Positions 45,992-62,567 of a DNA stretch of 64,000 bases are shown piece after piece; the first letter of the stretch is position 1, and every line of letters starts with the position of its first letter. The stretch is from the NCBI RefSeq assembly GCF_024707505.1, contig NZ_CP102604.1:3038001-3102000 (forward strand). The letters are read 5' to 3'. The notes below the pieces were generated by a model. That model was given only the letters and a program-made list of their open reading frames with translations. It did no database searches and had not been told where the DNA came from. Origin of the DNA: Pantoea sp. SOD02. Its GTDB lineage: Bacteria > Pseudomonadota > Gammaproteobacteria > Enterobacterales > Enterobacteriaceae. The position numbers were made by a program, and so were the translations under genes.

Positions 45992-46009
45992 CATGCTGGA
46001 AATCTAGAT

Positions 46010-47200: not shown

Positions 47201-47279
47201 TTAACTCTAATTTTCCAAGCATACGTCTACTTAAAAGAAAATTTATAGTCGATTTAACTTATTCACTCAAGGATTGACA

Positions 47280-48377
47280 ATGTATATACAAGACATCTCT
47301 AAAACCTCAAAATTCTGGGTTGTTCGCTCAGGAGATGGTGGAATGTTTTATGACCACTTCATACATAATTCAATCATTGCCATCGGCCATATAGATAGCA
47401 TGGATTATGATAACAATACATTGAAAAGCTCCGACTCTGTCGAAACTCTTGTATATAAATATAAAAACACCCTATTAGAAAAAAAAGAAACTCTAGCATC
47501 GGCATCAAACAAAGCTGGGCAAGTTAATAGATTTATTACTGATATGGCAATAGGTGATGTGGTTATCACTTTAGATGCTAAACGAATCATAGTGGGCGTA
47601 ATTAAGTCTGAAACATATAAAAAAAATGATAGCGTCACGCTTAAGAATGTTGATGGTTCGACAAGTGAATTAATGCTTAAATTTACTTTAAGAAGAGATG
47701 TTGACTGGGGTAAAACTCAGATGCGAAACAAGCTATCTTTAGCAATAAATAATAGCTTCCGAGCTAATCAAACCGTTTTTTCCGCCAATGAACACTGGAA
47801 AGAATTAAACCACTGGCTATCTGTTGCTTTCATTTCAGATGGTGAAGCATATATTTCATCTCGCATAGAACAAAAGGATGGAATTAACAATCTTGATATT
47901 GCCCAATACTCTATAATAATAAATAAAATCGAAGCAATCGCAGAGACTTTAGCTTATAATGACACTGATGAATTTTCCGATGATGATTTACTGGCTCTTT
48001 TTGAAGAAAACTATAAAGAACTACGAAAAAACCGTTCCTTTACGGTTACAACTCAGCAAGTATTTCTTTCACCGGGTGACCTGTGGGCTAAAACATCTGG
48101 TGATCGACTCAAAAGCTTGCTTGTTATTTCAACATTCCTCTTAATGTTTAATATTGAACCATCGTTTGCTAATGAAAATGACAAACAGTTCATCGATTCA
48201 AACAGAGATTCAATTTCACTGTTGCTTGAGAAAGTAAAGAGTGATGAAAGTTTTACCGAAGTACAACAGGGATTAGATTTACACGTTCCTCATCAGAAAA
48301 TAAGTAAAAACACTGAACGTGAGGCCTCAACAAATAATGGAAGTGACGTTGAACCAGACGATTTTGAAGGAATGTAA
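47280..48377 (+). CDS. Unknown protein with PUA/EVE-like N-terminal module
   Basis: I do not recognise a characterised family. The start is the ATG at 47280, preceded by AAGGA at 6 bases; a TTG six bases earlier is less likely. The first 150 residues have the pattern FWVVRSGDGGMFYDHFIHNSIIAIG and, later, FITDMAIGDVVITLDAKRIIVGVI then RRDVDW. It resembles the PUA/EVE-like modules at the N-terminus of some modification-dependent restriction proteins, which read modified bases. The middle is helical and the C-terminus acidic (DVEPDDFEGM). No nuclease motif is visible. It is AT-rich and sits next to int, with the membrane-protein gene 9 bases behind. Confidence 0.75.
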   Translation: MYIQDISKTSKFWVVRSGDGGMFYDHFIHNSIIAIGHIDSMDYDNNTLKSSDSVETLVYKYKNTLLEKKETLASASNKAGQVNRFITDMAIGDVVITLDAKRIIVGVIKSETYKKNDSVTLKNVDGSTSELMLKFTLRRDVDWGKTQMRNKLSLAINNSFRANQTVFSANEHWKELNHWLSVAFISDGEAYISSRIEQKDGINNLDIAQYSIIINKIEAIAETLAYNDTDEFSDDDLLALFEENYKELRKNRSFTVTTQQVFLSPGDLWAKTSGDRLKSLLVISTFLLMFNIEPSFANENDKQFIDSNRDSISLLLEKVKSDESFTEVQQGLDLHVPHQKISKNTEREASTNNGSDVEPDDFEGM

Positions 48378-48386
48378 GGAGACTGC

Positions 48387-49052
48387 ATGAACTTCCTTAG
48401 GAAGTGGTGGGATAACCATGATAAGTCAAATAACTTCTTATCTGGCATCCATTACATTGTTATATCGTTCGCCATCATTATTGGTGGCGGATGGGCTTTA
48501 TATACCTTTAAAGCTTTGGATATGGCAAGCAATGCAGAAATACAGTTATCAAAAGCTAACGAGGAACTCAAACAGATCAAAGAACAAATTAAAGGGACTG
48601 ACTCAAGTAGCATTACTATTAATGCATCCCCCTTAAAAACACAGCTGGGGATAATTATAAATGTAACGATCAAAAATAATGGTAAGCGCCCATTATCATT
48701 TAATACATCTAAAGGTTCTGTAACTGTCTATAAGATTAAAGCAGATGGTGATTCAATTGAGCAATCTCAGAAGTTAACACCTAACCTTTATACATCCATT
48801 CGAGACAAAGAAATTGATCCTGACACTAAAAGCAGATCGCTATCTAAAACTCACGTTTTAATTGGAGCTGAAAAAACCTTAAGCTACATCGTTGGATTAA
48901 AAGAACCGGGAATTTACTATATCGTTTTCAGATCAACACCGGACTCAAACTTTGAAGGTGAAGATTTAAAAAATGCTAAACCTGTTGAATGGTTTGCGTC
49001 AAGTTACATTGAAGTGACAAAATTGCAGCAAAACCCGGCTCACCAAAATTAA
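48387..49052 (+). CDS. Unknown single-pass membrane protein, partner of the preceding gene
   Basis: The 221-residue protein has a cytoplasmic N-terminus of about 20 residues (FLRKWWDNHDKSNN) and one membrane helix at about 22-44 (IHYIVISFAIIIGGGWALYTF). A short coiled coil follows (IQLSKANEELKQIKEQIKG), then a beta-rich domain with alternating hydrophobics (KTQLGIIINVTIKNNGKRPLS). No catalytic motif is seen. The start follows AAGGAG at good spacing, 9 bases after the upstream stop, so the two genes form an operon. A membrane-anchored effector or sensor is a guess from this layout. Confidence 0.75.
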   Translation: MNFLRKWWDNHDKSNNFLSGIHYIVISFAIIIGGGWALYTFKALDMASNAEIQLSKANEELKQIKEQIKGTDSSSITINASPLKTQLGIIINVTIKNNGKRPLSFNTSKGSVTVYKIKADGDSIEQSQKLTPNLYTSIRDKEIDPDTKSRSLSKTHVLIGAEKTLSYIVGLKEPGIYYIVFRSTPDSNFEGEDLKNAKPVEWFASSYIEVTKLQQNPAHQN

Positions 49053-49443
49053 ACTTTGATCCTTCCCCCAGTACTCCAACGCTCATTACTTAGAGAATGA
49101 AAAAATTTAAATCTACCGCCGCTCAAAATTGAATTTTCATCAATTTTATCAAGGTATGCTCGCCTCGCTAGCATTAAGTTTTATTTTTTAGTTGAGTATG
49201 CTCCCAGCATCGTTGCGCGCGCTCGTACCCCCGCCACGCCTGCCCGCTTTATGTAGCAGTTATCATGCGGTTGCATGAGTCCCTTCAGGCCGCGCCACTG
49301 CTGGCCTGAATTGCATTAAGTCAGCTGCATTTATTCATGCGTTTTCATGCAGCATAGGCATGCACTCATGCGCTTCAGGCTGGCCAGAGAAAAGGGATGT
49401 AAAAAACCGGCACGATGACCGGTAAAGTGTGGCTGATAAAAAC
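49053..49443. other. Gene-free stretch with GCATGA/TCATGC repeats
   Basis: I see no gene. The stretch includes several short TCATGC/GCATGA words between about 49,264 and 49,372, and a small hairpin CCGGCACGATGACCGG at about 49,411. Their function is unknown; they could be protein-binding sites of the satellite. Confidence 0.4.
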
Positions 49444-49713
49444 TCAGCTGAGGGCGTTCTGGCGGTTCGATAGTCTGCTGGCTGATCCATAACGGTTTAG
49501 CGTCTGCCGTTGTGGCGGTAATTCTTTCTCGGGGACATCTTCAGTTACCTTCTGCGGTTTCATGATAATGGTGTCCAGACTCTCCAGAGTAGTGAACGTG
49601 CAGGAGCAGTCGATATTACGACACTGATACCACGTCTTTTTTAACGTACCTGTCTGATATTCGCTGGTACGCGTGTGTGCGGTCATGCTGCATTCAGGGC
49701 ATTTCATTGCCAT
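49444..49713 (-). CDS. Ogr/Delta-type zinc-finger transcription activator
   Basis: The 89-residue protein begins MAMKCPECSMTAHTRTSEYQ and continues YQCRNIDCSCTFTTLES. It has the CxxC...CxxxxC zinc site and AHTRTS motif of the P2 Ogr / P4 Delta family (PF04606). These proteins activate late promoters of P2-like helpers and P4-like satellites. The ATG at 49713 is preferred to an adjacent GTG. Its neighbours in P4, sid and psu, are absent, so its target promoters may lie in a helper phage. Confidence 0.88.
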   Translation of the reverse strand: MAMKCPECSMTAHTRTSEYQTGTLKKTWYQCRNIDCSCTFTTLESLDTIIMKPQKVTEDVPEKELPPQRQTLNRYGSASRLSNRQNALS

Positions 49714-49960
49714 CACGTTTTTTTCCTTCTGTTTAACGCCAGTCCCCGTCCAGGCTGGAGTTACGGTTTATAAAGCCGTTATCGTTAGCTTTCTTTGTAG
49801 GGGGAGAGCCAATGGCGGCTCCGGTGAATGCATTGTGCCGTTGCTGGCACAGTCGAGCTATCGGATGACGTTGTGTGATGGCCCAGACAAAATGACCTTC
49901 TTCTGGCTGGCGGCAAGGTGACATATTGGCTCCCTGCTCAACTTTTAAATTTATATATAT

Positions 49961-50063
49961 CCTTCACCATTCTTCACCTTAATAAAAAAGAGAGTAAATA
50001 CAGTATATTAAAGGGTGAACAATTAATGGTTATCCCTTCACCCAGTGTTCACCATGCTTCACC
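49961..50063. other. Iteron cluster, probable replication origin/crr of the satellite
   Basis: Six TTCACC/GGTGAA words lie within about 100 bases: at 49963, 49973, 50014 (as GGTGAACA), 50037, 50046 (as TGTTCACC) and 50058. Phage P4 alpha protein binds GGTGAACA-type iterons in its ori and crr. An AT-rich stretch lies between the two groups. The rest of 49,714-50,341 shows no gene. Confidence 0.65.
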
Positions 50064-50341
50064 TGGCTTTTTATGCAGATAAACTTTATCGAGTGTTTAT
50101 TTCGATTGGTTTAAACATAATTAATCATTGAAAACGATTTGCATAATTCATCTCAGCACTATTGGTCTATATTGCCCTATATTTACCTGAGCAAAAAACA
50201 GGCGGTTAATTTTTGCGCGCCTGTGCCAGCCGCAGCACCATCTCGCCTTGTTGCTTTGGCAGTAAATATGCTGAAAATAAAGAGCTACCCGACTCCGGAC
50301 GTATCTGTCCGTATCACCACGGACTCAATAAGAGGTAGCTC

Positions 50342-50608
50342 ATGCACACCGTATTATCCGCAAACTCCTCCGCTCCTGCGGCCCCGGCTTTACCCGTAAA
50401 CCCGGTGCTAAATGACCGCTTCCTGCGGCTGCCGGAAGTCATGCACGTCTGCGGCCTGTCCCGCTCCACCATTTACGACCTTATCAGCCGCAACGCCTTC
50501 CCGGCGCAGGTGTCGCTTGGCGGCAAGAACGTGGCATGGCTCGCCAGTGAAATCAGCGTCTGGATGAGCGATCGCATTGCAGCACGCGGTCAGGAGCGCA
50601 CCGCATGA
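50342..50608 (+). CDS. alpA: AlpA-family transcriptional regulator
   Basis: The 88-residue protein has the AlpA/MerR-like helix-turn-helix (FLRLPEVMHVCGLSRSTIYDLISRNAFP) and a short wing (VSLGGKNVAWLASEI). Relatives include P4 Vis and CP4-57 AlpA, which regulate int/excision and late genes. GAGG precedes the ATG. Its stop overlaps the next small frame as ATGA. Confidence 0.9.
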   Translation: MHTVLSANSSAPAAPALPVNPVLNDRFLRLPEVMHVCGLSRSTIYDLISRNAFPAQVSLGGKNVAWLASEISVWMSDRIAARGQERTA

Positions 50609-50817
50609 GGTTTTTAAACCGTGCAGGTAAATCACGCGAACCCTCTGTCGCGCATACAGTGCCGCCTGTGCATGTGACTGGCGCCGGGATGGGTAAACCG
50701 CTACAGCCGCAGCGCTTTCGCGCAACGAAGCCAGCCTTAAGCCTGCAATGTGCAGGCGTCCCGCCCTCCGGTATCCGGACTGTTTCCCGTGGCGACATTT
50801 CTCCCGCCAGCTGCTGA
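50605..50817 (+). CDS. Small putative protein coupled to alpA
   Basis: A 70-codon frame starts in an ATGA overlap with alpA. The product (MRFLNRAGKSREPSVAHTV..) is basic with no recognisable domain. Frames of this kind recur after alpA in P4-like prophages, but the region also carries RNA-level regulation, so it may not be translated. Confidence 0.35.
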   Translation: MRFLNRAGKSREPSVAHTVPPVHVTGAGMGKPLQPQRFRATKPALSLQCAGVPPSGIRTVSRGDISPASC

Positions 50818-50914
50818 GGTTGCCTGATGTCACTTTTAACTGCTGCCTCCGGCTTGCGCGCCGGGGCCATTCCCTGGTACAGTAAATCCGCTGTCGCAAA
50901 ATCGGCAGCCGGGC

Positions 50915-51141
50915 GTAGGAACCCGAGTTACTCAATGGCGACACCAGACGCGCCATGCGTCTTTTTTTGTGTCCAAGCCTCAGTGCACCCATTTTTCGGG
51001 CAACGGTTCTGTATCCGTTGCGCCGTCTGCGTAATGGTGGCCCGGGCGGGGCAGCCTTCGGGCTGGCCGGTATCCATTGAGGCCGGTATTCCTACCCCCG
51101 TTCGGGCTACCACCCATGAGTGTAGGAACTCCGGTGGTAGC
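50915..51141 (+). ncRNA. P4 CI-RNA-like immunity leader
   Basis: Two GTAGGAAC words (50915 and 51122) flank a complementary TTCCTAC (51089-51095). GCTACCACC (51106) is complementary to GGTGGTAGC (51133). In phage P4 the short CI RNA pairs with such flanking sequences (seqA and seqC) to end transcription of the replication operon early, giving immunity. Position just before the kil-like gene fits. The RNA ends are not determined; the coordinates are those of the pairing words. Confidence 0.6.
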
Positions 51142-51171
51142 GATAACCGCTACTCTCTGGAGACTGCCATC

Positions 51172-51366
51172 ATGGCTACGGTCCTTAATTCCCCATACCC
51201 TCAGTTTGTTTTCATCTTTGCCGCCGTGCGCCGCTGCGAGCGCCAGCAGCATATTCATATGCTCCGCACCGTTGCCGCCGATGAGCGCGCCGCCCGCCTT
51301 TTGCTGGCCCGCGACTACGTGCTGTCCTTTGCCGCCCGCCTGCCGGTCCGGGAGGTGCGCGCATGA
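51172..51366 (+). CDS. Kil/Icd-like host cell division inhibitor
   Basis: The 64-residue protein starts at the ATG at 51172 after TGGAGA. It resembles the Icd-like small proteins of P4-type elements (ending [21 protein letters not shown]). P4 Kil blocks host division. The open frame extends to 50827, but that part runs through the immunity leader and is not credible as protein. Its stop overlaps the next start (ATGA). Confidence 0.7.
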
Positions 51367-51587
51367 CTCACGCCACGATTTCTCACGCCGACCTGGTACG
51401 CCTTGAGCACCTGCGTAACGCCGGGCGCTTCGTCAGCGACATGACCGCCTTTCAGGAGTGCCACGAACTGCCGCAGCCCGCTCAGCGCGCGCAGCTGGCT
51501 TCGCTGGTCTTTCTCATCACCGAGCAGCTGGATGACGTGGTGACGCGCTGCCAGAACAACTGGATGAACGCGGAGGATGAATCATGA
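51363..51587 (+). CDS. Small satellite protein, unknown
   Basis: The 74-residue product ([21 protein letters not shown]..) is helical and has no recognised domain. It overlaps both neighbours as ATGA and is part of one polycistronic unit leading to the primase gene. Confidence 0.7.
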
Positions 51588-51907
51588 AAGACCGCACCCT
51601 TTCGCCTGAACTGCGCGCCGCGCTTTCTCGCCGCGCCGTCGCCTGCGCGTGGCTGACCGTCTGCCGCGAGCAGCAGCGCTACCCCGGCCTGACGCTGGCG
51701 CGCCTTGAGCACATTATCGAAACCGAGCTGGAGGGCTTTTACCTGCGCCAGCACGGACGCCTGCGCGGTCAGGAAATTGCCTGCGCGCTGCTGGACGACC
51801 TGCTGTCCACCGGGCCGCTGAAGTCGGCCCCGCGCTTGAGCTTTCTCGGCCAGGTAATGATGGATGAACTCTGCGGGCGCATGACAGACGCCCCGGTGCT
51901 GCACTGA
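51584..51907 (+). CDS. DUF5375-like small protein upstream of primase
   Basis: The 107-residue product ([21 protein letters not shown] .. FYLRQHG .. [11 protein letters not shown]) resembles DUF5375 proteins of P4-like elements. Its place just before the primase is that of P4 Cnr, the copy-number regulator of 106 residues, but I cannot show homology to Cnr. Confidence 0.72.
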
Positions 51908-51921
51908 GGGAGAACAGAACG

Positions 51922-54246
51922 ATGAAAATGACCGTATCAGAGGCGGCCACCGCTGCGCGGGGCCACTGGCCCCGCATTCTGCCCGCGCTGGGCGTGAAGG
52001 TAATCAAAAACCGCCACATGCCGTGCCCGGTCTGTCAGGGAACGGACCGCTTTCGCTTCGACGATAAGGACGGGCGCGGCACGTGGATTTGTAATCAGTG
52101 CGGAGCCGGTGACGGCATGGACCTGGTGAAAAAGGCGCTCAGCATTACGTTCAGAGAGGCCGCCGCGCGCGTAAACGACCTGACCGGCAACCTGCCGCCG
52201 GTAGCGGCCGATATTATTACGGGTGCCGGTCCCGAAACGGACGACACATCTCGCGCCGCAGCATCTGAACTGGCGCAGCAGCTGGTCAGCACGGCAAAGG
52301 AAACGGCGGGCAACGCTTATCTTTCCCAGAAGGGGCTGCCAGAGCAGGCGTGCCTTACGCTTTCGAAGGCGCATAAGGTGGCGTTAACGACCTACCGCAC
52401 CGGCGATTTAGTTGTGCCCCTGCACGACATGAGCGGTCAGCTGGTTAACGTGCAGCTCATCAATGCCAGCGGAGAGAAGCGCACGCTCAAAGGCGGCCAG
52501 GTGAAAGGCGCCTGCCACGTCCTCAGCAGCGCTAAGCCGGCAAAGCGCATCTGGCTTGCAGAGGGCTACGCGACCGGCCTGACGGTGCACAACCTGACCG
52601 GTGATGAGGTGTGGGTTGCGCTCTCATCGGGCAACCTCCTTTCTCTGGCTGGCCTTGCCCGTGAAAAGCACGCCACGCTGCCGCTGATGATTGCCGCCGA
52701 CCGCGACCTTAACGGCAACGGTCAGGACAAGGCGAAGAAGGCCGCTGATGTCAGTAACGCCGTCGTCGCGCTACCGCCCGTGTTCGGCGACTGGAACGAC
52801 GCCTTTTTGCAGCACGGCGACGTCCCGACAAAGCAGGCGCTTACTGAGGCTGCTGCGCCCGCCACCGCCAGCCCGTTTGACGTGATGAGTGAGGCGGAGT
52901 TTTCGGCGATGAGCGCCAGCGAAAAAGCGGAGCGCGTTGCTGAGCATTACCGCAACGCGCTGGCGGTGGATGCCAGCGGTGAAATCCTGTCACGCTACAA
53001 GGCGGGCGCGTGGAAGGTCATTTCAGGTAAGCAGTTTGAGCGCGACGTGGCGAAGCTGTTCCAGCGGCTGCGCGCGCCGTTCTCGGCGGGCAAAATTTCA
53101 GGCGTGGTGGATACGCTGAAGCTGATGCTGCCGCAGCAGTCCGACCCGGCGCGCCGCCTGATAGGCTTTCGTAACGGCGTGCTGGACACGCGCACCGGCA
53201 GTTTCAGCCCGCACAGCAAACGCTTCTGGCTGCGCACGGTCAGCGAGGTGGACTTTACCCCACCGGTTAAGGGCGAGACGCTGGCGACCCATGCGCCGCA
53301 CTTCTGGCAGTGGCTGGACCGCGCCGCGGGATGCGACGCGGCAAAGCGCGATATTATTCTCGCCGCGTTGTTTATGGTGCTGGCGAACCGCTACGACTGG
53401 CAGCTGTTTCTGGAGGTCACGGGCCCCGGCGGCAGCGGCAAAAGCATCATGGCCGAAATCGCGACCATGCTGGCCGGATCGGACAACACCACCTCCGCGA
53501 CCATAGAGACGCTGGAGTCATCGCGCGAGCGCGCGGCGGTAATTGGCTACTCGCTGATAATTCTGCCCGACCAGGAGAAGTGGAGCGGCGACGGCGCGGG
53601 CATCAAGGCGATTACCGGCGGCGACGCGGTATCCGTGGACCCAAAATACCGCGATGCCTACTCAACGCACATTCCGGCGGTGATACTGGCGGTAAACAAC
53701 AATCCGATGCGCTTCACCGACCGCAGCGGCGGCGTGTCGCGCCGCCGGGTCATCCTGCACTTCCCGGAAATCATCCCGGCAAACGAGCGCGACCCGCAGC
53801 TGAAGGAAAAAATCAGCGGCGAGCTGGCCGTTATCGTCCGCCAGCTGATGCAGCAGTTCAGCCAGCCGCAGGACGCAAGGGCGTTGCTTCAGTCGCAGCA
53901 AAACTCCGATGAGGCGATGCGCATCAAGCGCGACGCGGATCCGATGGTGGACTTCTGCGGTTATCTGCTCACCACGCCGGAACCTACTTCGCTTTATATG
54001 GGAAACGCCAGCATCAGGCCGCTTCAGCCGAGGCGTTATCTTTACCATGCTTATCTGGCTTACATGGAGGCGAACGGCTACAGGAATCCACTCAGCATGA
54101 AGATGTTCAGTCTGTCGCTGGAGAGCATTATGCGCGAATACGGGCATCATTATCTGAAGCGGCGCACGAAGCTGGGGATGCAGACCAATCTTGATCTGAC
54201 TGAGGAAAGCAGTTCTGACTGGCTGCCCAAGTGTGATGCCACCTGA
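51922..54246 (+). CDS. P4 alpha-type primase-helicase
   Basis: This 774-residue replication protein (P4 alpha 777) has three parts. A zinc ribbon (C35, C38, C57, C60) is followed by a TOPRIM-like primase core (WLAEGYATGLTVHNLTG .. IAADRDLNGNGQDKA). A superfamily 3 helicase domain has Walker A GPGGSGKS with K507, and downstream VILAVNNNPMRF. The P4 protein primes, unwinds and binds the iterons. AGGGAG precedes the ATG. The gene is intact and its codon use is more GC-rich than the int-side genes. Confidence 0.93.
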   Translation: MKMTVSEAATAARGHWPRILPALGVKVIKNRHMPCPVCQGTDRFRFDDKDGRGTWICNQCGAGDGMDLVKKALSITFREAAARVNDLTGNLPPVAADIITGAGPETDDTSRAAASELAQQLVSTAKETAGNAYLSQKGLPEQACLTLSKAHKVALTTYRTGDLVVPLHDMSGQLVNVQLINASGEKRTLKGGQVKGACHVLSSAKPAKRIWLAEGYATGLTVHNLTGDEVWVALSSGNLLSLAGLAREKHATLPLMIAADRDLNGNGQDKAKKAADVSNAVVALPPVFGDWNDAFLQHGDVPTKQALTEAAAPATASPFDVMSEAEFSAMSASEKAERVAEHYRNALAVDASGEILSRYKAGAWKVISGKQFERDVAKLFQRLRAPFSAGKISGVVDTLKLMLPQQSDPARRLIGFRNGVLDTRTGSFSPHSKRFWLRTVSEVDFTPPVKGETLATHAPHFWQWLDRAAGCDAAKRDIILAALFMVLANRYDWQLFLEVTGPGGSGKSIMAEIATMLAGSDNTTSATIETLESSRERAAVIGYSLIILPDQEKWSGDGAGIKAITGGDAVSVDPKYRDAYSTHIPAVILAVNNNPMRFTDRSGGVSRRRVILHFPEIIPANERDPQLKEKISGELAVIVRQLMQQFSQPQDARALLQSQQNSDEAMRIKRDADPMVDFCGYLLTTPEPTSLYMGNASIRPLQPRRYLYHAYLAYMEANGYRNPLSMKMFSLSLESIMREYGHHYLKRRTKLGMQTNLDLTEESSSDWLPKCDAT

Positions 54247-54382: not shown

Positions 54383-54396
54383 GTCTGCTATGAGCG
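54383..54396 (+). repeat. GTCYGCTATGAGCG repeat, copy 1
   Basis: GTCTGCTATGAGCG occurs here, 112 bases before the OLD nuclease gene. Further copies are at 58735 and 62544. The remainder of 54,286-54,508 shows no gene and should hold the promoter of the nuclease-helicase pair. Confidence 0.7.
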
Positions 54397-54508
54397 GGGT
54401 GCGTACATTTAGAGCAGTGCCTCCATTTTAATCTCTTTTGATTGCTATAGGCGACAAGATATATTACTGATGGCAAATTGATATTACTTAGGCTTTCAAG
54501 GACGGCCC

Positions 54509-56803
54509 ATGTACATCCAGCACATAGAGATATCTAATTTCCGAAAGCTACTTTCTGTGCGAATTGATTTCGCTAACGAGACCACGCTGCTTGTAGGTGC
54601 AAACAACAGCGGCAAATCCTCTGCCATGCTGGCACTACGGAGATTTTTGGTTTCTAAGGCTTCAGCTTTTCGGCTCCAGGATCTGACTCTTTGTCATCTC
54701 GCCAAGCTGGATGAGATTGGTAAAGTGTGGGAGAACGCGCCGGAAAACTATGAAATCCCTACAGCCAAGGACTGGGCTGACTGGCTCCCTAGTCTGGATA
54801 TCTGGGTGTCGGCAGATCAAGGGGAGTTTCATTACATCCGGGATCTCATACCCAACTTTGCGTGGCGCGGGGGGCTAGTGGGAATGCGTTTTCTGCTTGA
54901 ACCTGATGATATGAATACGCTGTACACTGACTATCGTAAGGAGCGCACGAGGGTTGTAGAGCTTGAGGATGCTCTAGAGATGGAAGAAACACCCGGTAGG
55001 CCGCTGAAGCTATGGCCGCAGAGCCTACATGATTACCTGACCCGTCGGCTGGGAGATAAATTCAAAATACGTTGGTACCGCCTAGATCCGCAACAACTTA
55101 AAAAGCCTAACAAGTCGACTAGAATGGCGCAAATGCAGCAATTGAGCCCTACTGCCCATCCCTTGGAAAGCAATCCTCTCAGTGGATTAATTCGAGTACA
55201 TGAAATCAATGCACAGCGGGGATTCGGCGACCATTCTGACGACAAACAGGGAGATTACATTAGACCCAGCGGCGCTCAAAAACTCTCGGAACAACTCAGA
55301 TCTTATTACTCCCGACACCTTGACCCAGGTGACAGCCCAGATGTCTCAGACCTCGAAGCGTTGCGGGCGATAGAAGCAGCTCAATCGGCATTCGATACGA
55401 GGCTTAGTAGCAGCTTCGAACCTGCTATTAGAGAGGTTGAGGGATTGGGCTACCCAGGCCGTAATGACCCACGCATTAAAGTCGCAAGTCGCCTAGCAAC
55501 AACCGACGGCATGAACCATGAAGCGGCCGTCCTTTTTGAGTTGGATTCAATCCAGGGTGCCCCTGGATCCCCTCCTCTTCATTTACCAGAGACCGCTAAC
55601 GGGTTAGGATATCAAAACCTGATATCTATGATTTTCCGGCTGATGGGCTTCAGGGACGAGTGGCTGAGAAAAACCAGAGCAGCCAGCACGGAAGTAATAG
55701 ACCGCGTCGAGCCCATCCACCTAGTGCTCATTGAAGAACCTGAAGCCCACCTTCATGTTCAAGTGCAGCAAGTGTTCGTGCGGCACGCTTACCAAGTTCT
55801 ATGTCGAGACGCTTTGCTTGAACGCTACCCAAATCTGAAGACTCAGCTTTTGGTGAGCACTCACTCCAGCCATGTAACACATGAAGTGGAGTACCAGAAT
55901 CTTAGGTATTTCAGGCGACTTCCAGCCGGGATGTATGATATCGGTGTACCGGTGTCGACGGTCTCTAATCTCTCTAACGTGTTCGGTGAAGGAACAAAGA
56001 CGAAGGAGTTCGTTACCAGGTATCTGCGGGCACAGCATGCAGATATATTCTTCGCCGATGCCGTCATATTGGTAGAGGGTTCAGCAGAGCGAATGATGCT
56101 GCCGCATTTTTTGCGAAATAAGTTTCCATTCCTTGACCGCTGCTACATCACAACCCTCGATATCGGTGGCAGTCACGCACACCGATTAAGGCCTTTAATT
56201 GACGCCCTTGGCATCCTCACCCTGGTTATTACAGACCTTGATGCAGGGCTTAATAAAGCTGCAAAACCGGTGCAAAGAAACTCAGATCAGATTACGAACA
56301 ATCCGACATTGCGGAGCTGGATGAAACTGATGCATCTGGGCAGCACAGTGAATGAACTGCTTGAGTTACCAGCGAACCAAAAAGAGCACAAAATCGACGA
56401 CCTGTACTCTGTACGCATAGCCTATCAAACTCCTATTTCAACCCATCTGCCCGCTACTGGTGAAGAAATACAAGCTCTTCCAAATACCTTTGAAGACAGC
56501 TTTGTGCTTAGCAACGCTTGTTACTTTGCGGAAAAGACAAATGGTACTGGTCTGATGAAGGCTTTCGTAAAAGTTTTGAATGAGGCGCAAACATCAGAAG
56601 CCGTCGGAGAAGGTTTTTTCAAAGAATTACGCGAAGGAAAGAAAGCAGAGTTTGTGTTGCTTGTTTTGGGCGACAAAGATTTTCCCAGCCTCAAAATCCC
56701 TGAATACATCATCGAAGGCCTCAACTGGCTTGAGTCCAAATTGCGAAGCAAGCAAAAAGAGCTTCTGGTAATTCCGCCCGAGGGCGCGGAGGTGACGTCA
56801 TGA
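54509..56803 (+). CDS. OLD-family ATP-dependent nuclease (GajA-like)
   Basis: The 764-residue protein has an ABC-type ATPase followed by a TOPRIM nuclease domain. Walker A is VGANNSGKSS (K36) and Walker B is LVLIEEPEAHLH (E409/E410). The TOPRIM acidic residues are E523 in ILVEGSAER and D576/D578 in ITDLDAGL. Class 2 OLD nucleases stand beside a UvrD-like helicase, and the Gabija anti-phage system has this two-gene form. It is about 190 residues longer than Bacillus cereus GajA (578), mostly between the ATPase motifs. AAGGA precedes the ATG. The overlap with the next gene is ATGA. Confidence 0.85.
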   Translation: MYIQHIEISNFRKLLSVRIDFANETTLLVGANNSGKSSAMLALRRFLVSKASAFRLQDLTLCHLAKLDEIGKVWENAPENYEIPTAKDWADWLPSLDIWVSADQGEFHYIRDLIPNFAWRGGLVGMRFLLEPDDMNTLYTDYRKERTRVVELEDALEMEETPGRPLKLWPQSLHDYLTRRLGDKFKIRWYRLDPQQLKKPNKSTRMAQMQQLSPTAHPLESNPLSGLIRVHEINAQRGFGDHSDDKQGDYIRPSGAQKLSEQLRSYYSRHLDPGDSPDVSDLEALRAIEAAQSAFDTRLSSSFEPAIREVEGLGYPGRNDPRIKVASRLATTDGMNHEAAVLFELDSIQGAPGSPPLHLPETANGLGYQNLISMIFRLMGFRDEWLRKTRAASTEVIDRVEPIHLVLIEEPEAHLHVQVQQVFVRHAYQVLCRDALLERYPNLKTQLLVSTHSSHVTHEVEYQNLRYFRRLPAGMYDIGVPVSTVSNLSNVFGEGTKTKEFVTRYLRAQHADIFFADAVILVEGSAERMMLPHFLRNKFPFLDRCYITTLDIGGSHAHRLRPLIDALGILTLVITDLDAGLNKAAKPVQRNSDQITNNPTLRSWMKLMHLGSTVNELLELPANQKEHKIDDLYSVRIAYQTPISTHLPATGEEIQALPNTFEDSFVLSNACYFAEKTNGTGLMKAFVKVLNEAQTSEAVGEGFFKELREGKKAEFVLLVLGDKDFPSLKIPEYIIEGLNWLESKLRSKQKELLVIPPEGAEVTS

Positions 56804-58647
56804 GCGAAGCAGTTGTCGCAGATGCCGACACAATTATGCAGGCTTGTCTGAATCTGGCAGATCCGAAGAGTTTTTTTCTTTACGCAGGAGCGGGCTCAGG
56901 AAAAACCCACTCACTCGTCGAGGCTATCCGCGAACTCAAAAGCCGCGAGCGAGAACGCCTGACATTCGAGGGGAGGCGCATTGCGGTGATTACCTATACA
57001 AACGCAGCATGCGAGGAGATTCTTCGAAGGCTAGAGTTTGATCCACTCGTGGAAGTCTCAACCATTCACGCGTTCGCATGGCGCCTAATCCAAGGATTCG
57101 ACAACGAGATCAGAGAGTGGCTAAGGATCAAACTTGCCCAGGACATTGAGAAGATCGAGGGCGAGCTAGCACGCTCGAGAGGCGACAATAAAACATCTCG
57201 AGCAAACCGACGGAAGCTACGAAGCAAAATACGCAGACTTGAGACTCTCGACGAGATTACTAAGTTCATCTATAGCCCTACAAGTAACAACAAAGAACGA
57301 CAAGCACTTAATCACGATGAGGTCATCAAGTTGACCGCAGCATTCGCTCCTAAGCGCCCTTTGTTGGATGTTCTAGTAGACCTCTACCCAGTTGTATTGA
57401 TTGACGAAAGCCAAGACACCCACGCGCCATTAATGGAGGCTTTTCTGAAAGTCCAGCAATTGGCGCAGACACGCTTCTGCCTTGGGCTACTAGGCGACAC
57501 CATGCAACAAATTTACAGCCACGGGGTAACGCATCTTGATAAAGCGATACCGGGTGACTGGCGGAAACCTGAAAAGGTCGTTAATCGCCGCTGTCCTCGT
57601 AGAGTGGTAGACCTTATCAACGTGATTCGAAGCACCGTAGACAATCATCAGCAGACCCCAAAGCCTGATGCCATTCAAGGTGTAGTGCGCATGTACTGCA
57701 TTAGTCAAAACCAAGAACAGGCACCAAATCTTGAAGAAGGCATCGCTCATTCAATGGCTGCAATCACCGACGACGGAGAATGGGCTACCGGCCCTAAAGG
57801 CCGAAAGACATTGATTCTCGAACATAAGATGGCTGGACGGCGGATGGGGTTCGAAAAGCTGTTTACGCCCCTCTACGCAGTTGAGCACCTTCAAACAGGC
57901 TTGTTGGATGGAACCCTGACCGCACTTCGCGTTTTCAGCGAAGGCGTTCTTCCTATCCTTACCGCAAAGGACGATCACTTCCTTCTGCTTGAAGCAGTAC
58001 GATCTCGTTCCTCCTTGCTCAGCAAGGACGCTATGCAGTCAACAGTGGATCAATCGGCCCACATGCAGCGTATAGAGGACGCGACGCACGCCCTGCTCTC
58101 TCTTTTCGAAAGAAACGATCCAACACTGAGCGAAGTTGCAACGCTTCTGTTGCAAACTCAACTGCTTGATGTACCAGAAAATTTGGTTGAGGCAATGGTG
58201 TTTGAATCTTCTGGAGAAGCGCCCGATCCTGAAGATACGAACGCGATAACCAATTATGCCTATCAGCTATTTCTTGAGCGCCCATTTTCGGAGCTGGCAG
58301 CTTTTACAACTTATACAGATGGCCTTTCACCCTATGGTACGCACCAAGGCGTAAAGGGACTCGAGTTCCCTCGAGTTATGGTTGTCATCAACGATGATGA
58401 GGCAGACGGCTTTTTGTTCAGCTACGACAAATTGCTGGGTGTGAAAGAACCAACAAAAACTGATCAAAACAATGAGCGTGATGGCAAGGACCACGCACTG
58501 GCTCGTACTCGCAGGCTTCTCTACGTAACGTGTAGTCGTGCTGAAAATAGCTTAGCGATTGTCGTATACACACCTCAGCCGGCACTGGTCAAGCGAAACG
58601 TTGTTGCTGCTGGCTGGCTCCAAGAGAGCGAGATCGAAATCCTATGA
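56800..58647 (+). CDS. UvrD/Rep-like superfamily 1 helicase (GajB-like)
   Basis: The 615-residue helicase has motif I YAGAGSGKTHS (K35), Ia TYTNAACEEI, II LIDESQD (D202-D206), III LLGDTMQQIY, V THQGVKGLEFPRVMVV and VI LLYVTCSRAENS. The start overlaps the nuclease stop by 4 bases, so the two are translationally coupled in fixed ratio. In Gabija GajB senses DNA ends and activates the GajA nuclease. It is longer than B. cereus GajB (494) and carries a charged coiled segment at about 115-150. Confidence 0.87.
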   Translation: MSEAVVADADTIMQACLNLADPKSFFLYAGAGSGKTHSLVEAIRELKSRERERLTFEGRRIAVITYTNAACEEILRRLEFDPLVEVSTIHAFAWRLIQGFDNEIREWLRIKLAQDIEKIEGELARSRGDNKTSRANRRKLRSKIRRLETLDEITKFIYSPTSNNKERQALNHDEVIKLTAAFAPKRPLLDVLVDLYPVVLIDESQDTHAPLMEAFLKVQQLAQTRFCLGLLGDTMQQIYSHGVTHLDKAIPGDWRKPEKVVNRRCPRRVVDLINVIRSTVDNHQQTPKPDAIQGVVRMYCISQNQEQAPNLEEGIAHSMAAITDDGEWATGPKGRKTLILEHKMAGRRMGFEKLFTPLYAVEHLQTGLLDGTLTALRVFSEGVLPILTAKDDHFLLLEAVRSRSSLLSKDAMQSTVDQSAHMQRIEDATHALLSLFERNDPTLSEVATLLLQTQLLDVPENLVEAMVFESSGEAPDPEDTNAITNYAYQLFLERPFSELAAFTTYTDGLSPYGTHQGVKGLEFPRVMVVINDDEADGFLFSYDKLLGVKEPTKTDQNNERDGKDHALARTRRLLYVTCSRAENSLAIVVYTPQPALVKRNVVAAGWLQESEIEIL

Positions 58648-59088
58648 AGTTTATTCTTGGTCTGATTAGCTCCTGACTTTGAAGATGTTGCAAACGTACG
58701 CTTCTGGCATAGAGCGACATGCGCGCTTGGCAAGGTCTGCTATGAGCGAATAACGGACATATCATGTACAGATACTGGTGGTTTTAAAATTACGCAATCA
58801 TGCAAGATGATTAATTCCGATCTGACTGACTTTGTCACTAGACATTCTTTCCGAATATGCTCTTTCGTCCATATAGAAAAGCACGATTTATACGATGCGA
58901 AAGCTATCAACACTGTAGAGACCGGCACAGGGGGGGCCAAGTGTGTTTTTTCACAGAAGTGGGAGGATAAAGGCGGGATTACTGGACAGAATGACTGTAG
59001 TGTCCAGTGCAAAGGAGCGAGAGCTGATTATGGTATGATTTCGCTTATCCCCTGCGTTTATGGCAGACACAACAGCCCGGATGGCAAC
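58648..59088. other. Spacer with repeat copies between the helicase and nuclease genes
   Basis: I see no gene; the open frame that runs through 58807-59088 is an upstream extension of the next gene. The spacer holds copy 2 of GTCYGCTATGAGCG (58735-58748). At 58981-59008 is a hairpin element that starts ACTGGACAGAATGAC and ends TGTCCAGT. A TATGAT at 59034 could be the -10 of the next gene. Confidence 0.6.
58981..59008 (+). repeat. TGGACAGAAT hairpin element, copy 0
   Basis: ACTGGACA and TGTCCAGT form an eight-base stem around a 12-base loop. It shares ACTGGACAGAAT with the three longer elements that follow the next genes, but lacks their TGCCAGCA part. Confidence 0.7.
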
Positions 59089-59877
59089 ATGACAACAACG
59101 AGTTTAGTTGAGAGATTTAAAGCACTGGATGAAGATTATCACGCAGTCGTTTCAACAAAAAAAAGAATTATAGATGCTTCAGGAGGAGACGATGAATATG
59201 TCGATTCGGCCAAAAGTAATAAGTGGATTGCAAGAGTTAAAAAATTGCTTGAGGACAGCTATGGAAAGGAATCTGATTATTATATAGATTTCAATAATAC
59301 TGCAAAGGTGAAATGGTTTACTAATTATGGAAAATTAGTAAACCATTACAAACCTCTCTTTGATGCAGCCAAAGATGATTTAGAAAATTTACCTGCGACC
59401 AGTATTAATAAAGCGGAAAATACATCGCTGGAATGGGTTATCGGGATTCTTGAGCGATTCCCTGCGTTCTGCCGTCAGTTAAAAAAACGGCACAACGACA
59501 GGGCAGCGTTTGAAATTAACGACGAGTATGACGTACAGGATCTGGTTCATGCCCTTCTGATGCTGCATTTTGATGATATCAGGGATGAAGAGCCTTCACC
59601 CAGCCATGCCGGTGCGTCGTCCAGGCAGGACTTTCTTCTGAAGGCGGAGAAAATAGTCATAGAGGTGAAAAAAACCCGAAAGAATCTGGGCGCGCGTCAA
59701 ATCGGCGAGGAGCTGATTACAGATATGGCACGCTACCGTGCACATCCTGAATGCGAGACGCTTATCTGTTTCGTGTATGATCCTGAAGAGTGGGTTAAAA
59801 ACCCGAAAGGCGTCATAAGCGATCTGGAGGGGGATGATAAAGAAGGAAAGACCAGAGTCGTGATAGCCCAGTTCTGA
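59089..59877 (+). CDS. PD-(D/E)XK-superfamily nuclease-domain protein
   Basis: I place the start at the ATG at 59089 (MTTTSLVERFKALDED), giving 262 residues. The C-terminal third carries SRQDFLLKAEKIVIEVKKTR, with D181 and E192-x-K194 in the D...(D/E)xK arrangement. ELITDMARYRAHPECETLICFVYDP, usual in this nuclease group, follows. The N-terminal half is helical and unrecognised, and may sense a trigger or bind a partner. It stands alone between repeat elements. Members of this group are common in defence islands but most lack an assigned function. Confidence 0.8.
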   Translation: MTTTSLVERFKALDEDYHAVVSTKKRIIDASGGDDEYVDSAKSNKWIARVKKLLEDSYGKESDYYIDFNNTAKVKWFTNYGKLVNHYKPLFDAAKDDLENLPATSINKAENTSLEWVIGILERFPAFCRQLKKRHNDRAAFEINDEYDVQDLVHALLMLHFDDIRDEEPSPSHAGASSRQDFLLKAEKIVIEVKKTRKNLGARQIGEELITDMARYRAHPECETLICFVYDPEEWVKNPKGVISDLEGDDKEGKTRVVIAQF

Positions 59878-59892
59878 GGCTCACTATTGCAT

Positions 59893-60030
59893 CTGGACAG
59901 AATTACCTGAACGTCCAGAGTAGCGCGGGGATTACGTCACAGAGAAGAGTTTGCCAGCAGTAATGCGACCGCACTGGTGCAGCAAAGTCGGAATTTGCCA
60001 GCAGTTTTTAACTGATTGTGCAGCTGCAGC
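59893..60030 (+). repeat. Intergenic repeat element, copy A
   Basis: It starts CTGGACAGAATTACCTGAAC and ends its first part with GTCCAG (six-base stem). It then carries TGCCAGCA (59952), TGCGACCG, TGCCAGCA (59996) and CAGCTGCAG. It begins 15 bases after the nuclease stop codon. The 59,878-60,169 spacer has no other gene. Confidence 0.75.
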
Positions 60031-60169
60031 CAGATGAATGACAGCAAAGGAAAGGATAGCTGTTCTATCCAGTGTGCAAAGATGACACATCCGGGAAATT
60101 TATGTCGAGATCGTGACAGGCCTCCTGCATTATACTGGCTTCATATTCCCGGCAGAGGCTTACGCGAAA

Positions 60170-60979
60170 ATGAAGGTTTATCATTACACTGACCTAAATG
60201 GACTTAAAGGCATTATTGAAAGTAATTCTCTGTGGGCAACCAATATTAATTTTCTCAACGATGAAGATGAAATGCATCATGGTATTTCCGCTTTTGAAAA
60301 TACGCTTATTCACCTGAAGGATGATCTTAGCGATAAGAGCATAGGGATATTGCGTATAGCAATAGAAGGCCATCGCTTACATCAGGCAAGACATAATTAT
60401 AATATTTCATTCTGCCAGAACCCTGATCTCCTCAGCCAGTGGCGCGGGTATGGCTCATCGCAGGGCGTGTGTCTTGAGTTTGACAGCGATGAGTTAATTG
60501 AAGCTTTGGATTTCGGAACATCCAGATTTTTTTCTGGCGATGTATTTTATACAAAGCCGGATTCGACATTAAAAGCAAAAGAGGAAATTCTCAAATTCCT
60601 GAACGATGCCGATTTCCTTGAACAAAAAAATAACTCAGCTATCCATGAATTTGTTGGTACATCCGAGCTGGTTAATAGCCTGACACCTTTTTTCAAGCAT
60701 GAAAGTTTTCAGGAAGAATGCGAATACCGGATTGTCATACAGCCAGAAACGAAGTCAGACCAAGTATGTTTTCGTGTTAATGGACTCGGTCTTATACCGT
60801 ATATCCAGATCAAGGCTAAACAAATCACGCCTCATACAGGGTTATTGCCACTGAGAAGCGTAAGGATTGGGCCATGCAAAAACCGGGATTTTTTGCTTGA
60901 AGGGATAGGTTTTTTACTTAACTGCAATGGATACTCAGATGTCGAATATTCATTCACTGAAACGCCTTTTCGGGCTTAG
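60170..60979 (+). CDS. DUF2971 family protein
   Basis: The 269-residue protein begins MKVYHYTDLNGLKGIIESNSL and continues LWATNINFLNDEDEMHHG, the DUF2971 signature. The conserved SFCQNPDLLSQWRGYGSSQGVCLEF follows. The biochemical activity of DUF2971 is unknown; members are scattered in mobile and defence loci. I use the ATG at 60170, since the GTG at 60113 would add 19 residues without family support. It is a single-gene unit followed at 10 bases by repeat copy B. Confidence 0.82.
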   Translation: MKVYHYTDLNGLKGIIESNSLWATNINFLNDEDEMHHGISAFENTLIHLKDDLSDKSIGILRIAIEGHRLHQARHNYNISFCQNPDLLSQWRGYGSSQGVCLEFDSDELIEALDFGTSRFFSGDVFYTKPDSTLKAKEEILKFLNDADFLEQKNNSAIHEFVGTSELVNSLTPFFKHESFQEECEYRIVIQPETKSDQVCFRVNGLGLIPYIQIKAKQITPHTGLLPLRSVRIGPCKNRDFLLEGIGFLLNCNGYSDVEYSFTETPFRA

Positions 60980-60988
60980 CCAGCAGCG

Positions 60989-61165
60989 CTAGACAGAATA
61001 ACCTGAGCGTCCAAGTGCGGTGTAAAAAAACGTTAAACTTGGCGTCAGCCAGCATTTCTGCGACCGGCGGCAGCTGGCACCGGTCCGATCTGCCAGCAAT
61101 TCAGGTGCTGGCCTCACAGCTGCAGGTATACGAATGCCAGCATTGGACACTAAACCTGTATGACC
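60989..61165 (+). repeat. Intergenic repeat element, copy B
   Basis: It starts CTAGACAGAATAACCTGAGC followed by GTCCA. It then has GCCAGCA (61048), TGCGACCG, TGCCAGCA (61091), CAGCTGCAG and a further TGCCAGCA at 61135 followed by TTGGACA. It starts 10 bases after the DUF2971 stop and is the most complete copy. The rest of the spacer to 61,271 probably holds a promoter. Confidence 0.75.
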
Positions 61166-61271: not shown

Positions 61272-62330
61272 ATGACTCTTTCAACTGAAAACACATTCAG
61301 GGCAGTGTACCGGAATTTTAAAAATAGAAATCCATCATGCGATAATATAGATATATTGATAACTGTTTTGAATGCTGAATTAGGTATAGGTGGATATTCT
61401 GTTACTCCATCGGTCATAACCGGCATTAGAGATTTAAATGGATTCTGTGTTTGCTATAACAATCACAAAGCATTTATGCCGCAACGATCAGTATTCAACC
61501 ACCCAAAGACAGTATTCGAATATATTGGTAATATCCTCAACGAAGCTGAAATTATCACGCCCAATTATATTGGCTATGGCGTTCTTGGGACGCTGGCTGA
61601 TGGCATAAAAAATGCTTCCAACAAGGAGGATAAGCTGATGCTTGGGGAACGCGCCCTTACTGCCATGTTTCCGCCAGAAATCCTGTCACTTCTGGTAACA
61701 GAGCACTACCCTAAATTTTCGGCTTTAGAGCAGTGCATAGTACAGATCAGGGAAACAACCGAGGCTTACTGTCTCGGATTATATCGTTCTGCAATCACAA
61801 CCTTACTACCCTGCATAGAAAATGCTATACGTGCATTAGGTGTTCAATTGAATATTAATCAGCCAGAAAACGTGGGGACGCAATTCTTCCTTAGTATTTA
61901 TGATGCATGGCTAAAATATTATATTTACGATTATATGTATCGTGATTATGACTGGATGCCGCAATCAATCCGTGAGCGTAAGTTTTTTGGAGGGTTTGAT
62001 GAGCGTTTTCAGATAGGCTTAAATGGTAGGAATTATTTTGAGAAGCATCTTTATCAGAGTTCTAAAAAAGATATTGGCTTAAGTAAGCTGAACAGACACA
62101 GTATTCTGCATGGGTTCATGGATGAATATCATACTAAAGGAAACTACTTAAGGCTGATAAATCTTCTGAATAACATCTGTTTTATGATGACGATTGCAGG
62201 TGAGTCTGTATCACTATTTCTTCCTGAGAAAACAGAAAAATATCAGGCTTTCTACGCGAACCTTACAGTGCAGGAGCGCGTTGGTTTAAATCGCGCAATG
62301 TTTCTAGACGCTAACAGCATTGCGCGTTAA
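61272..62330 (+). CDS. Unknown protein with HEPN-type RxxxxH motif
   Basis: The 352-residue protein is not in a family I can name. The C-terminal part reads LNRHSILHGFMDEY, giving R275-x4-H280, the catalytic signature of HEPN ribonucleases. Helical segments flank it (LGLYRSAITTLLPCIENAIRAL before; YLRLINLLNNICFMMTIAGE after), as expected of an HEPN bundle. The N-terminal third (about 1-120) is unrecognised. It is a single-gene unit; repeat copy C begins at the base after its stop codon. An RNase toxin used in abortive defence is a plausible but unproven role. Confidence 0.72.
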   Translation: MTLSTENTFRAVYRNFKNRNPSCDNIDILITVLNAELGIGGYSVTPSVITGIRDLNGFCVCYNNHKAFMPQRSVFNHPKTVFEYIGNILNEAEIITPNYIGYGVLGTLADGIKNASNKEDKLMLGERALTAMFPPEILSLLVTEHYPKFSALEQCIVQIRETTEAYCLGLYRSAITTLLPCIENAIRALGVQLNINQPENVGTQFFLSIYDAWLKYYIYDYMYRDYDWMPQSIRERKFFGGFDERFQIGLNGRNYFEKHLYQSSKKDIGLSKLNRHSILHGFMDEYHTKGNYLRLINLLNNICFMMTIAGESVSLFLPEKTEKYQAFYANLTVQERVGLNRAMFLDANSIAR

Positions 62331-62508
62331 CTGGACAGAATAACCTGAGCGTCCAATATGGCGTGGTAAGAACGTTGCAGAGCATATTTACCATCGGTTC
62401 AGCTACTGACTGCGCGCCCGGCCGAAAGTTATGCCAGCATTTTTCAGTCTGTCCGTGTAGTTGGTGCAACCAGAATGCCAGCACTGGACAGAATAACTTG
62501 AACGTCTG
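62331..62508 (+). repeat. Intergenic repeat element, copy C with partial second copy
   Basis: It starts CTGGACAGAATAACCTGAGC followed by GTCCA directly after the preceding stop codon. TGCCAGCA lies at 62432 and 62476. The latter runs straight into a second CTGGACAGAATAACTTGAAC at 62484. So the element ends where another begins, as if a following gene had been lost or had never been inserted. Confidence 0.75.
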
Positions 62509-62543: not shown

Positions 62544-62567
62544 GTCCGCTATGAGCGATCAGCGGAC
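62544..62567. repeat. GTCYGCTATGAGCG repeat, copy 3, palindromic
   Basis: GTCCGCT and AGCGGAC form a perfect seven-base stem around ATGAGCGATC. The first 14 bases match the copies at 54383 and 58735. It lies about 70 bases before the end of panB and may mark the end of the accessory cluster. The rest of the 62,331-62,635 spacer has no gene. Confidence 0.7.

What the first reader, a model, noticed from the sequence alone, without database searches (positions are those of the whole stretch)
54509..58647. Enlarged Gabija-like nuclease-helicase pair
The OLD nuclease (764 residues) and UvrD-like helicase (615) overlap by ATGA and keep all catalytic motifs. Both are far longer than the founding Gabija proteins (578 and 494). 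The extra parts lie between the ATPase motifs of the nuclease and in a charged coil of the helicase. It could be a distinct subtype with a different trigger or assembly.
Basis: partly seen in the sequence, partly recalled or inferred. Interest (0 to 1): 0.65.

Follow-up and report, generated by a model that had tools for sequence, protein, structure and literature searches.

The report
Long-form Gabija anti-phage gene pair
This is an intact two-gene Gabija-type phage defence system of a long form that is common across bacteria and already held in defence databases; its size is normal for its branch, although that branch lies far from the one studied in the laboratory structures.

Summary
In detail: gajA (54509-56803, 764 aa) and gajB (56800-58647, 615 aa) overlap by ATGA and keep the catalytic motifs. 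"Enlarged" is true only against the B. cereus founders. PADLOC already has GajA models of 736-752 and GajB models of 625-632 positions that match end to end (E 4e-303 and 4e-236). In 72 pairs from 80 GTDB loci, the closest found, the median is 766/635 aa.
The pair does not cluster closely with the founders. It lies in a deep clade (SH-aLRT 100; 93/90 for the same group) spanning at least six phyla; 53 of 55 GajBs there carry DESQD in motif II, against 2 of 55 outside. The predicted GajA fold still matches B. cereus GajA best over its full length (Z 19.5, 501 residues).
Extra GajA length: +120 aa between Walker A and B, +23 linker, +43 C-terminus. In GajB most (79 of 106 aa) lies between motifs II and VI, not in the charged coil.
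In three Pseudomonas species DNA similarity (89-91%) covers just the two genes plus about 90 bp upstream, with dN/dS about 0.1: a self-contained, selected cassette, here in a P4-like element beside ssrA. A different trigger or assembly is possible but untested.

The parts
54418..54508 (+). upstream region that moves with the pair; probable promoter (TTGATT-16-TATATT at 54438-54465) and ribosome-binding site (AAGGA)
   Evidence: DNA similarity to three Pseudomonas loci starts at 54418 and the stretch aligns upstream of gajA. The promoter-like match is no better than shuffles (1 found, 1.2 expected), so it is inference; the ribosome-binding site is read by eye.
54509..56803 (+). gajA: long-form GajA / class 2 OLD nuclease (ABC ATPase + Toprim), 764 aa
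54596..54619 (+). GajA Walker A (GANNSGKS, residues 30-37)
   Evidence: window sequence; G30, N32, N33, G35, K36 invariant in 54; motif name recalled
54620..55732 (+). interval Walker A to Walker B: 373 residues from K36 to E409 against 253 in B. cereus GajA; holds most of the extra length; residues 239-254 have pLDDT under 50
55733..55756 (+). GajA Walker B (EEPEAHLH, residues 409-416)
   Evidence: motif name recalled
56075..56242 (+). GajA Toprim core, E523 to D578 (E..E and DxD metal ligands)
   Evidence: ligands as in PMC6755086
56486..56644 (+). GajA T660-x-E662 (second metal site of class 2 OLD) to K712, in the C-terminal helical region
   Evidence: E662 and K712 invariant in 54; T506/E508 of BpOLD in PMC6755086; mapping is inference
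56800..58647 (+). gajB: UvrD/PcrA/Rep-like SF1A helicase, 615 aa, start overlaps gajA stop by ATGA
56884..56907 (+). GajB motif I (AGAGSGKT, residues 29-36)
57100..57255 (+). GajB charged helical hairpin (helices 101-125 and 131-152), taken as the 1B region; the interval it lies in is 26 residues longer than in the L011 GajB
   Evidence: the 1B region holds the GajA contact in B. cereus (PMC10781630 passages); the equation with 1B is inference
57403..57417 (+). GajB motif II DESQD, typical of the long clade (53 of 55 against 2 of 55 outside)
58522..58542 (+). GajB motif VI (YVTCSRA)

Best explanation
A complete, selectively maintained two-gene Gabija anti-phage system of the long form, carried as a cassette in a P4-like satellite or island beside ssrA. 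GajA is an ATP-gated Toprim DNA nuclease and GajB a UvrD-type helicase. By analogy with studied Gabija, GajA oligomerises through its ATPase domain, GajB docks on it, and the complex acts on incoming phage DNA (probably ends or unwound DNA not protected by RecBCD, as reported for PA14, or on nucleotide depletion, as reported for B. cereus), cutting or blocking it so that the phage cannot replicate. Shown here: gene structure, motifs, predicted folds, conserved pairing, purifying selection, movement as a two-gene unit. Inferred: complex, trigger, outcome.
For: PADLOC GajA PDLC00095 (E 4.2e-303, residues 1-759 on profile 1-747 of 752) and GajB PDLC00143 (E 3.5e-236). Best full-length solved fold for the GajA model is GajA: Foldseek rank 1 (8x5i_B), VIA Z 20.4 (8x5i_D, 472 aligned) and 19.5 (B. 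cereus 8sm3_A, 501 aligned). Class 2 metal ligands kept across 54 homologues apart from T660. GajB helicase directly downstream in 72 of 73 GTDB and 68 of 69 viral-contig loci with a complete gajA and room (four of the 68 are fragments). Two-gene similarity block 54418 to 58647/58652 in three Pseudomonas species. dN/dS 0.10-0.12 for both genes.
Against: No activity can be shown. Identity to solved GajA is only about 15%, and the N-terminal half does not align by profile comparison (one search aligns 364-583 only). By profile the class 1 OLD of Thermus scores slightly above B. cereus GajA (87 against 81 bits). The GajB model is closer to UvrD, Rep and PcrA than to B. cereus GajB (rank 49). NCBIfam gives no Gabija name.
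Confidence: 0.87

Rival explanations
1. The long form is a true Gabija subtype: its larger ATPase insert and its fuller helicase give an assembly, or a trigger, different from the B. cereus 4:4 complex.
For: Deep clade in both proteins. Long plus intermediate forms: 100/99 (40 rows), 99 (67 rows), 99, GajB 100. Long forms alone: 93/90 (33 rows), 100 (55 rows), 99, GajB 99. Group-specific motif II DESQD. Extra residues lie in the Walker A-B interval, which in B. cereus GajA holds the dimerisation insert, and partly in the GajB 1B hairpin, which in B. cereus holds the GajA contact (PMC10781630 passages).
Against: Length is graded, not stepped (Walker A-B interval 242 to 396 over the 137 of 212 proteins that could be measured). 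Overall fold is that of GajA. No interface or trigger was tested.
Confidence: 0.35
2. The long pair arose independently: an OLD nuclease and a UvrD helicase came together a second time, so it works like Gabija but is not the same system by descent.
For: In the GajA tree the helicase-less YbjD proteins fall with the B. cereus-type side (SH-aLRT 92, 81, 99). In the GajB tree E. coli Rep and UvrD fall inside a 22-row group holding the B. cereus-type GajBs (97) and not with the long clade. GajB model nearest to UvrD/Rep.
Against: With RecB and helicase IV added, holding all 38 GajBs together against 4 cellular helicases is not rejected (p-AU 0.806; the held tree is 14.8 log units better). Quick trees with long branches. 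The GajA fold favours solved GajA.
Confidence: 0.08
3. A larger operon: the restriction-like gene at 58807-59877 and the genes after it belong to the system.
For: Same strand, ORF starts 159 bp downstream, defence-like DpnII-MboI domain.
Against: No homologue of these three genes (phmmer E 1e-5) in the 54 other loci of the first set or the 157 of the second, whose flanks differ in length. Similarity to Pseudomonas stops at or 5 bases after the gajB stop codon.
Confidence: 0.03
4. A DNA-repair or other housekeeping pair, not defence.
For: OLD-family proteins can do other work (archaeal Cran1, PMC12796447 passages); GajB resembles UvrD and Rep.
Against: Patchy: in the 30-genome genus sample only the window's own genome gave a real match, the other hit being 39 bases at E 9e-4. 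Carried on a satellite-like element and, in relatives, on plasmids, some with other defence-like genes near.
Confidence: 0.04

Closest known systems
PADLOC long GajA/GajB models PDLC00095, PDLC00093 / PDLC00143, PDLC00111
   Same: End-to-end matches in both genes; lengths 752, 736 and 632, 625.
   Different: Nothing important; the window is a member.
Long-form pairs in Pseudomonas gingeri, P. fluorescens C8 and P. siliginis (L112-L114)
   Same: 92-94% protein identity for GajA, 89-91% DNA identity over the two genes.
   Different: No DNA similarity to the window outside the block (L112 ends about 125 bases after gajB).
Gabija of Bacillus cereus VD045 (structure 8sm3 and the like)
   Same: OLD nuclease followed by UvrD-type helicase; same GajA fold order; same Toprim ligands.
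   Different: About 15% identity; 186 aa shorter GajA and about 120 aa shorter GajB; DEYQD in its Paenibacillus and Lactococcus relatives (L011, L010) instead of DESQD.
Gabija of Pseudomonas aeruginosa PA14 (PAPI-1)
   Same: The preprint gives DESQ as the GajB motif (PMC12407980 passages), which in my set marks the long clade.
   Different: Sequence not held here, so its placement is a guess from one motif.
PARIS AriA, retron Eco8 effector, class 1 OLD (P2 Old, TsOLD, YbjD)
   Same: ABC ATPase and/or Toprim parts.
   Different: No AriB or reverse transcriptase among the neighbours scanned; here the Toprim domain is fused and a helicase follows.

Membership tests
Gabija / class 2 OLD | ABC-type ATPase with Walker A and B in GajA | tested here: met
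   GANNSGK 30-36, EEPEAHLH 409-416; core residues invariant in 54 homologues
Gabija / class 2 OLD | Toprim with E..E, DxD and the second metal site T-x-E | tested here: met
   E523, E527, D576, D578, E662 invariant in 54; T660 present in the window and invariant in the 13 nearest; ligands from PMC6755086 passages; mapping of T660/E662 by pattern
Gabija / class 2 OLD | helical domain after the Toprim core | tested here: met
   helices between 661 and 752 in the model
Gabija / class 2 OLD | UvrD/PcrA/Rep-like helicase directly downstream | tested here: met
   gajB, ATGA overlap; PF00580 E 1.5e-18; fold UvrD Z 27.8, rmsd 4.5, 389 aligned
Gabija / class 2 OLD | full-length fold of GajA | tested here: met
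   top Foldseek hit 8x5i_B; VIA Z 19.5, rmsd 5.2, 501 aligned to 8sm3_A
Gabija / class 2 OLD | curated family models | tested here: met
   PADLOC GajA and GajB. NCBIfam showed no Gabija match; best were retron Eco8 and PtuA models far below cut-off
Gabija / class 2 OLD | 4:4 GajA-GajB assembly | not testable with these tools
   pair is 1379 aa, above the folding limit of 1200
Gabija / class 2 OLD | phage restriction needing both genes | not testable with these tools
   bench test needed
B. cereus-type (founding) Gabija clade | clusters with the founders' relatives in GajA and GajB trees | tested here: not met
   separate deep clades (B. cereus GajA itself not in the trees; L011, 64% identical to it over 163 Toprim-region residues, and L010 stand for it)
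PARIS (AriA/AriB) | separate AriB Toprim gene | tested here: not met
   Toprim is fused in GajA; no AriB among the neighbours scanned
Retron type I-B (Eco8) | reverse transcriptase gene next to the OLD gene | tested here: not met
   no reverse transcriptase among the neighbours scanned
Class 1 OLD | stand-alone gene | tested here: not met
   helicase partner in tandem

The most novel reading that the evidence does not exclude
The DESQD/long clade is an unnamed second type of Gabija with its own assembly (larger ATPase dimerisation insert, fuller UvrD-like helicase) and perhaps its own trigger, such as DNA ends that RecBCD has not loaded; conclusions drawn from the short B. cereus complex would then not carry over to the many bacteria that hold the long form.
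Probability: 0.33. Interest if true: 0.5.

Novelty: new member of a known kind. Interest (0 to 1): 0.22.

Why it matters
As far as the search outputs show, the solved GajA chains are one B. cereus-type sequence (same match positions apart from tag offsets). If the common long form differs in assembly or trigger, the two conflicting models in print (nucleotide sensing and abortive, B. cereus; DNA-end targeting licensed by absence of RecBCD and non-abortive, PA14) might simply describe two types. This pair, with close intact copies in three Pseudomonas species, would be a convenient test object. As a finding in itself it is ordinary.

Tried and rejected
Third component: the three downstream genes have no homologue beside any other pair examined and fall outside the block shared with Pseudomonas.

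Independent origin of the helicase partner: suggested, not upheld by the AU test. Root and deep branches stay unresolved.

Island right end: no second copy of the ssrA 3' end in the window (3 mismatches allowed, 18 bases) or in the genome (2 allowed, 20 bases), so no attR is claimed.

Single-protein search of IMG/VR found no relative; the 13-sequence alignment found 77 loci. Near-identity search in 5,426 E. coli genomes: no match. phmmer of GajB against PDB sequences: nothing at E 0.01. The sequence profile search gave T. scotoductus OLD a little above B. cereus GajA, the reverse of the fold ranking; B. cereus GajB is not in the shown rows of the VIA second look, which proves nothing.

Limits and dropped rows: the genome-contig scan keeps the best 80 of 418 relatives and was made with a long-form query, so its lengths describe the long form, not all Gabija. 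L098 (contig end, no room for gajB) was left out of the 54-row tree. In one search only 137 of 212 GajA sequences matched my motif patterns; the 75 others, including the short references L010-L013, were not measured, and the B. cereus numbers come from counting on the alignment. Some loci are one place seen in two collections (L084/L167, L077/L173, L080/L182); the 110-row tree was thinned at 60% identity (110 of 196). The trees use hand-picked rows (69, 63 and 42). Of the 68 viral-contig loci with gajB, four have only a 102-127 aa helicase fragment (L197, L238-L240). The single misses are L160 (interrupted gajA) and L268. gajB spacings were measured on 160 of 201.

PA14: I could not place its GajA because I did not have its sequence; only the printed motif DESQ was used.
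Full report
Observation. The catalytic motifs are present. The founders are shorter: B. cereus GajA 578 aa and a 493-residue GajB chain in 8sm3.

Where the extra length lies. Measured between motifs, GajA has 373 residues from Walker A to Walker B against 253 in B. cereus GajA, 114 against 91 from Walker B to the Toprim glutamate, 53 in both to DxD, and 189 against 146 to the end: +120, +23, 0, +43 (window; B. cereus counted by hand on the alignment printed).

Is the size unusual? No. PADLOC models of 736-752 (GajA) and 625-632 positions (GajB) match end to end. Eight plasmid relatives from Agrobacterium, Rhizobium, Sphingomonas, Roseovarius, Pseudomonas, Burkholderia and Polaromonas are annotated with GajA of 744-784 and GajB of 631-653 aa. 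Of 80 loci kept from GTDB genomes (the best 80 of 418 relatives), 73 have a complete gajA and room downstream; 72 of them have gajB directly next to it, with median lengths of 766 and 635 aa and the 4-base overlap in 36 by first-start-codon ORFs. In 77 IMG/VR loci, which reach far into other groups, it is 68 of 69, four of them with only a helicase fragment. In sampled genomes a match at E 0.001 or better occurs in 50 of 398 of the phylum and 44 of 295 of the family, the window's own genome counted and many of the matches distant.

Phylogeny. In a 54-row careful GajA tree the long and intermediate proteins (40 rows) split from the rest by a branch of 2.39 changes per column with support 100/99; the long ones alone (33 rows) have 93/90. 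In a 110-row quick tree the window lies in a 67-row clade (SH-aLRT 99) and inside it in a 55-row clade (100). There, 53 of 55 partner helicases have DESQD in motif II; outside, 2 of 55 (L105, L242; recounted). Members come from Pseudomonadota, Bacteroidota, Bacillota, Actinomycetota, Planctomycetota, Ignavibacteriota and Bdellovibrionota by the labels. A 69-row tree with eight helicase-less OLDs keeps the long group whole (99) and puts three YbjD-like proteins near B. cereus-type GajA with moderate support; that Class 2 is nested within Class 1 has been published (PMC12796447 section 7). The 63-row GajB tree gives the same long group (99). That all GajBs share one origin apart from Rep, UvrD, RecB and helicase IV is not rejected (p-AU 0.806). 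Deep nodes rest on long branches and must be read with care. B. cereus GajA itself is not in the trees; its nearest relatives at hand (L011, L010) stand for it.

Structure. The GajA model (54-sequence alignment, pLDDT 86.9, pTM 0.85) finds solved GajA first by Foldseek (8x5i_B, E 3.6e-18) and by VIA (8x5i_D Z 20.4, rmsd 4.5, 472 aligned; B. cereus 8sm3_A Z 19.5, rmsd 5.2, 501 aligned). SMC heads (best Z 17.7, ATPase part only), the retron Eco8 OLD protein (Z 17.1) and T. scotoductus OLD (Z 16.6) follow. The GajB model (pLDDT 92.1, pTM 0.87) is nearest to UvrD, Rep and PcrA (E 7e-20; D. radiodurans UvrD Z 27.8); B. cereus GajB comes at rank 49 (E 1.6e-10). The window's helicase thus looks like a fuller UvrD than the B. 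cereus partner, so the founders may be the reduced ones (inference).

The unit. DNA similarity to the Pseudomonas gingeri, P. fluorescens C8 and P. siliginis loci runs from 54418 to 58647 or 58652 at 88.9-91.1%, and those loci match nowhere else in the window (blastn, E 1e-5; the P. gingeri contig ends about 125 bases after gajB). Both genes show dN/dS of 0.10-0.12 in these pairs. The pair is therefore a self-contained, selected cassette with about 90 bp of upstream DNA. The three downstream genes have no homologue in the 54 and 157 other loci scanned.

Surroundings. The pair lies between a P4-type primase gene (51922-54246, TIGR01613 E 6.7e-34) and other accessory genes, in an element that begins with an integrase (46010-47200) next to ssrA (45454-45816). 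P4-type primase homologues also lie near other Gabija pairs: L263, L264, L215, L218 and L241 (GajA 566-710 aa) and the long-form L091. That P4-like satellites carry defence hotspots is published (PMC9122126 passages).

How it works. By established knowledge of the family: GajA is an ATP-gated Toprim nuclease, GajB an SF1A helicase; B. cereus forms a 4:4 complex (PMC10781630 passages). For PA14 the preprint reports non-abortive defence against DNA ends that RecBCD has not loaded on, and gives DESQ as the GajB motif (PMC12407980 passages). Because DESQ marks the long clade here, PA14 Gabija may be of this form, and the window pair may act alike; this is inference from one motif.

Literature. I saw search listings, passages of PMC12407980, PMC10568477, PMC11878078, PMC10781630, PMC12796447, PMC6755086 and PMC9122126, and one section of PMC12796447. 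The listings show no paper that names a long-form Gabija subtype in its title or in the start of its abstract; 'Gabija-like' occurs in no held paper. The library holds open-licence papers only.

Verdict. An ordinary, intact member of a common long form of Gabija; a fair candidate for a named subtype, but nothing here shows a new trigger or assembly.

Noticed in passing
45454-54246: P4-like element beside ssrA: integrase 46010-47200, repressor-like 50827-51366 (phrog_6928), small gene 51584-51907 (phrog_5991), alpha-type primase 51922-54246. No attR found.
   Followed up: partly
58807-59877: DpnII-MboI restriction-like domain in residues 213-355 (PF18742, E 1.9e-49); the first ~94 codons overlap an intergenic-type repeat, so the true start is probably near 59089 (inference).
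   Followed up: partly
58981-59004, 59892-59915, 60988-61011, 62330-62353, 62483-62506: 24-nt repeat (CTGGACAGAATAACCTGAGCGTC-like) lying between the cargo genes downstream of gajB. In the genome a 25-base version matches three of these copies with up to 3 mismatches and nothing else: a possible cassette boundary or exchange site.
   Followed up: partly
54383-54396, 58735-58748, 62544-62557: 14-nt repeat GTCTGCTATGAGCG close outside both ends of the gajAB cassette and again near the end of the cargo; a 17-base version with up to 3 mismatches is about as frequent in the genome as its control (10 and 4 against 7 and 7).
   Followed up: partly
47274-48377: 367-aa gene with a partial match to candidate defence family PDC-S02 (E 1.9e-20 over residues 13-175), next to the integrase, in a low-GC stretch (36-40%).
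   Followed up: no
60113-60979 and 61272-62330: DUF2971 protein and a 352-aa protein without a family match in the four libraries searched; possible further defence cargo.
   Followed up: no
L009 (Pseudomonas filamentous phage PfAC02b): a Gabija pair annotated as 647 and 660 aa in a 13.7-kb filamentous phage, on an intermediate branch between long and short forms.
   Followed up: partly
L291, L293, L296, L297: OLD proteins grouping with helicase-less YbjD (99) whose helicases group with Rep/UvrD (96): a possible separate OLD-helicase pairing.
   Followed up: partly
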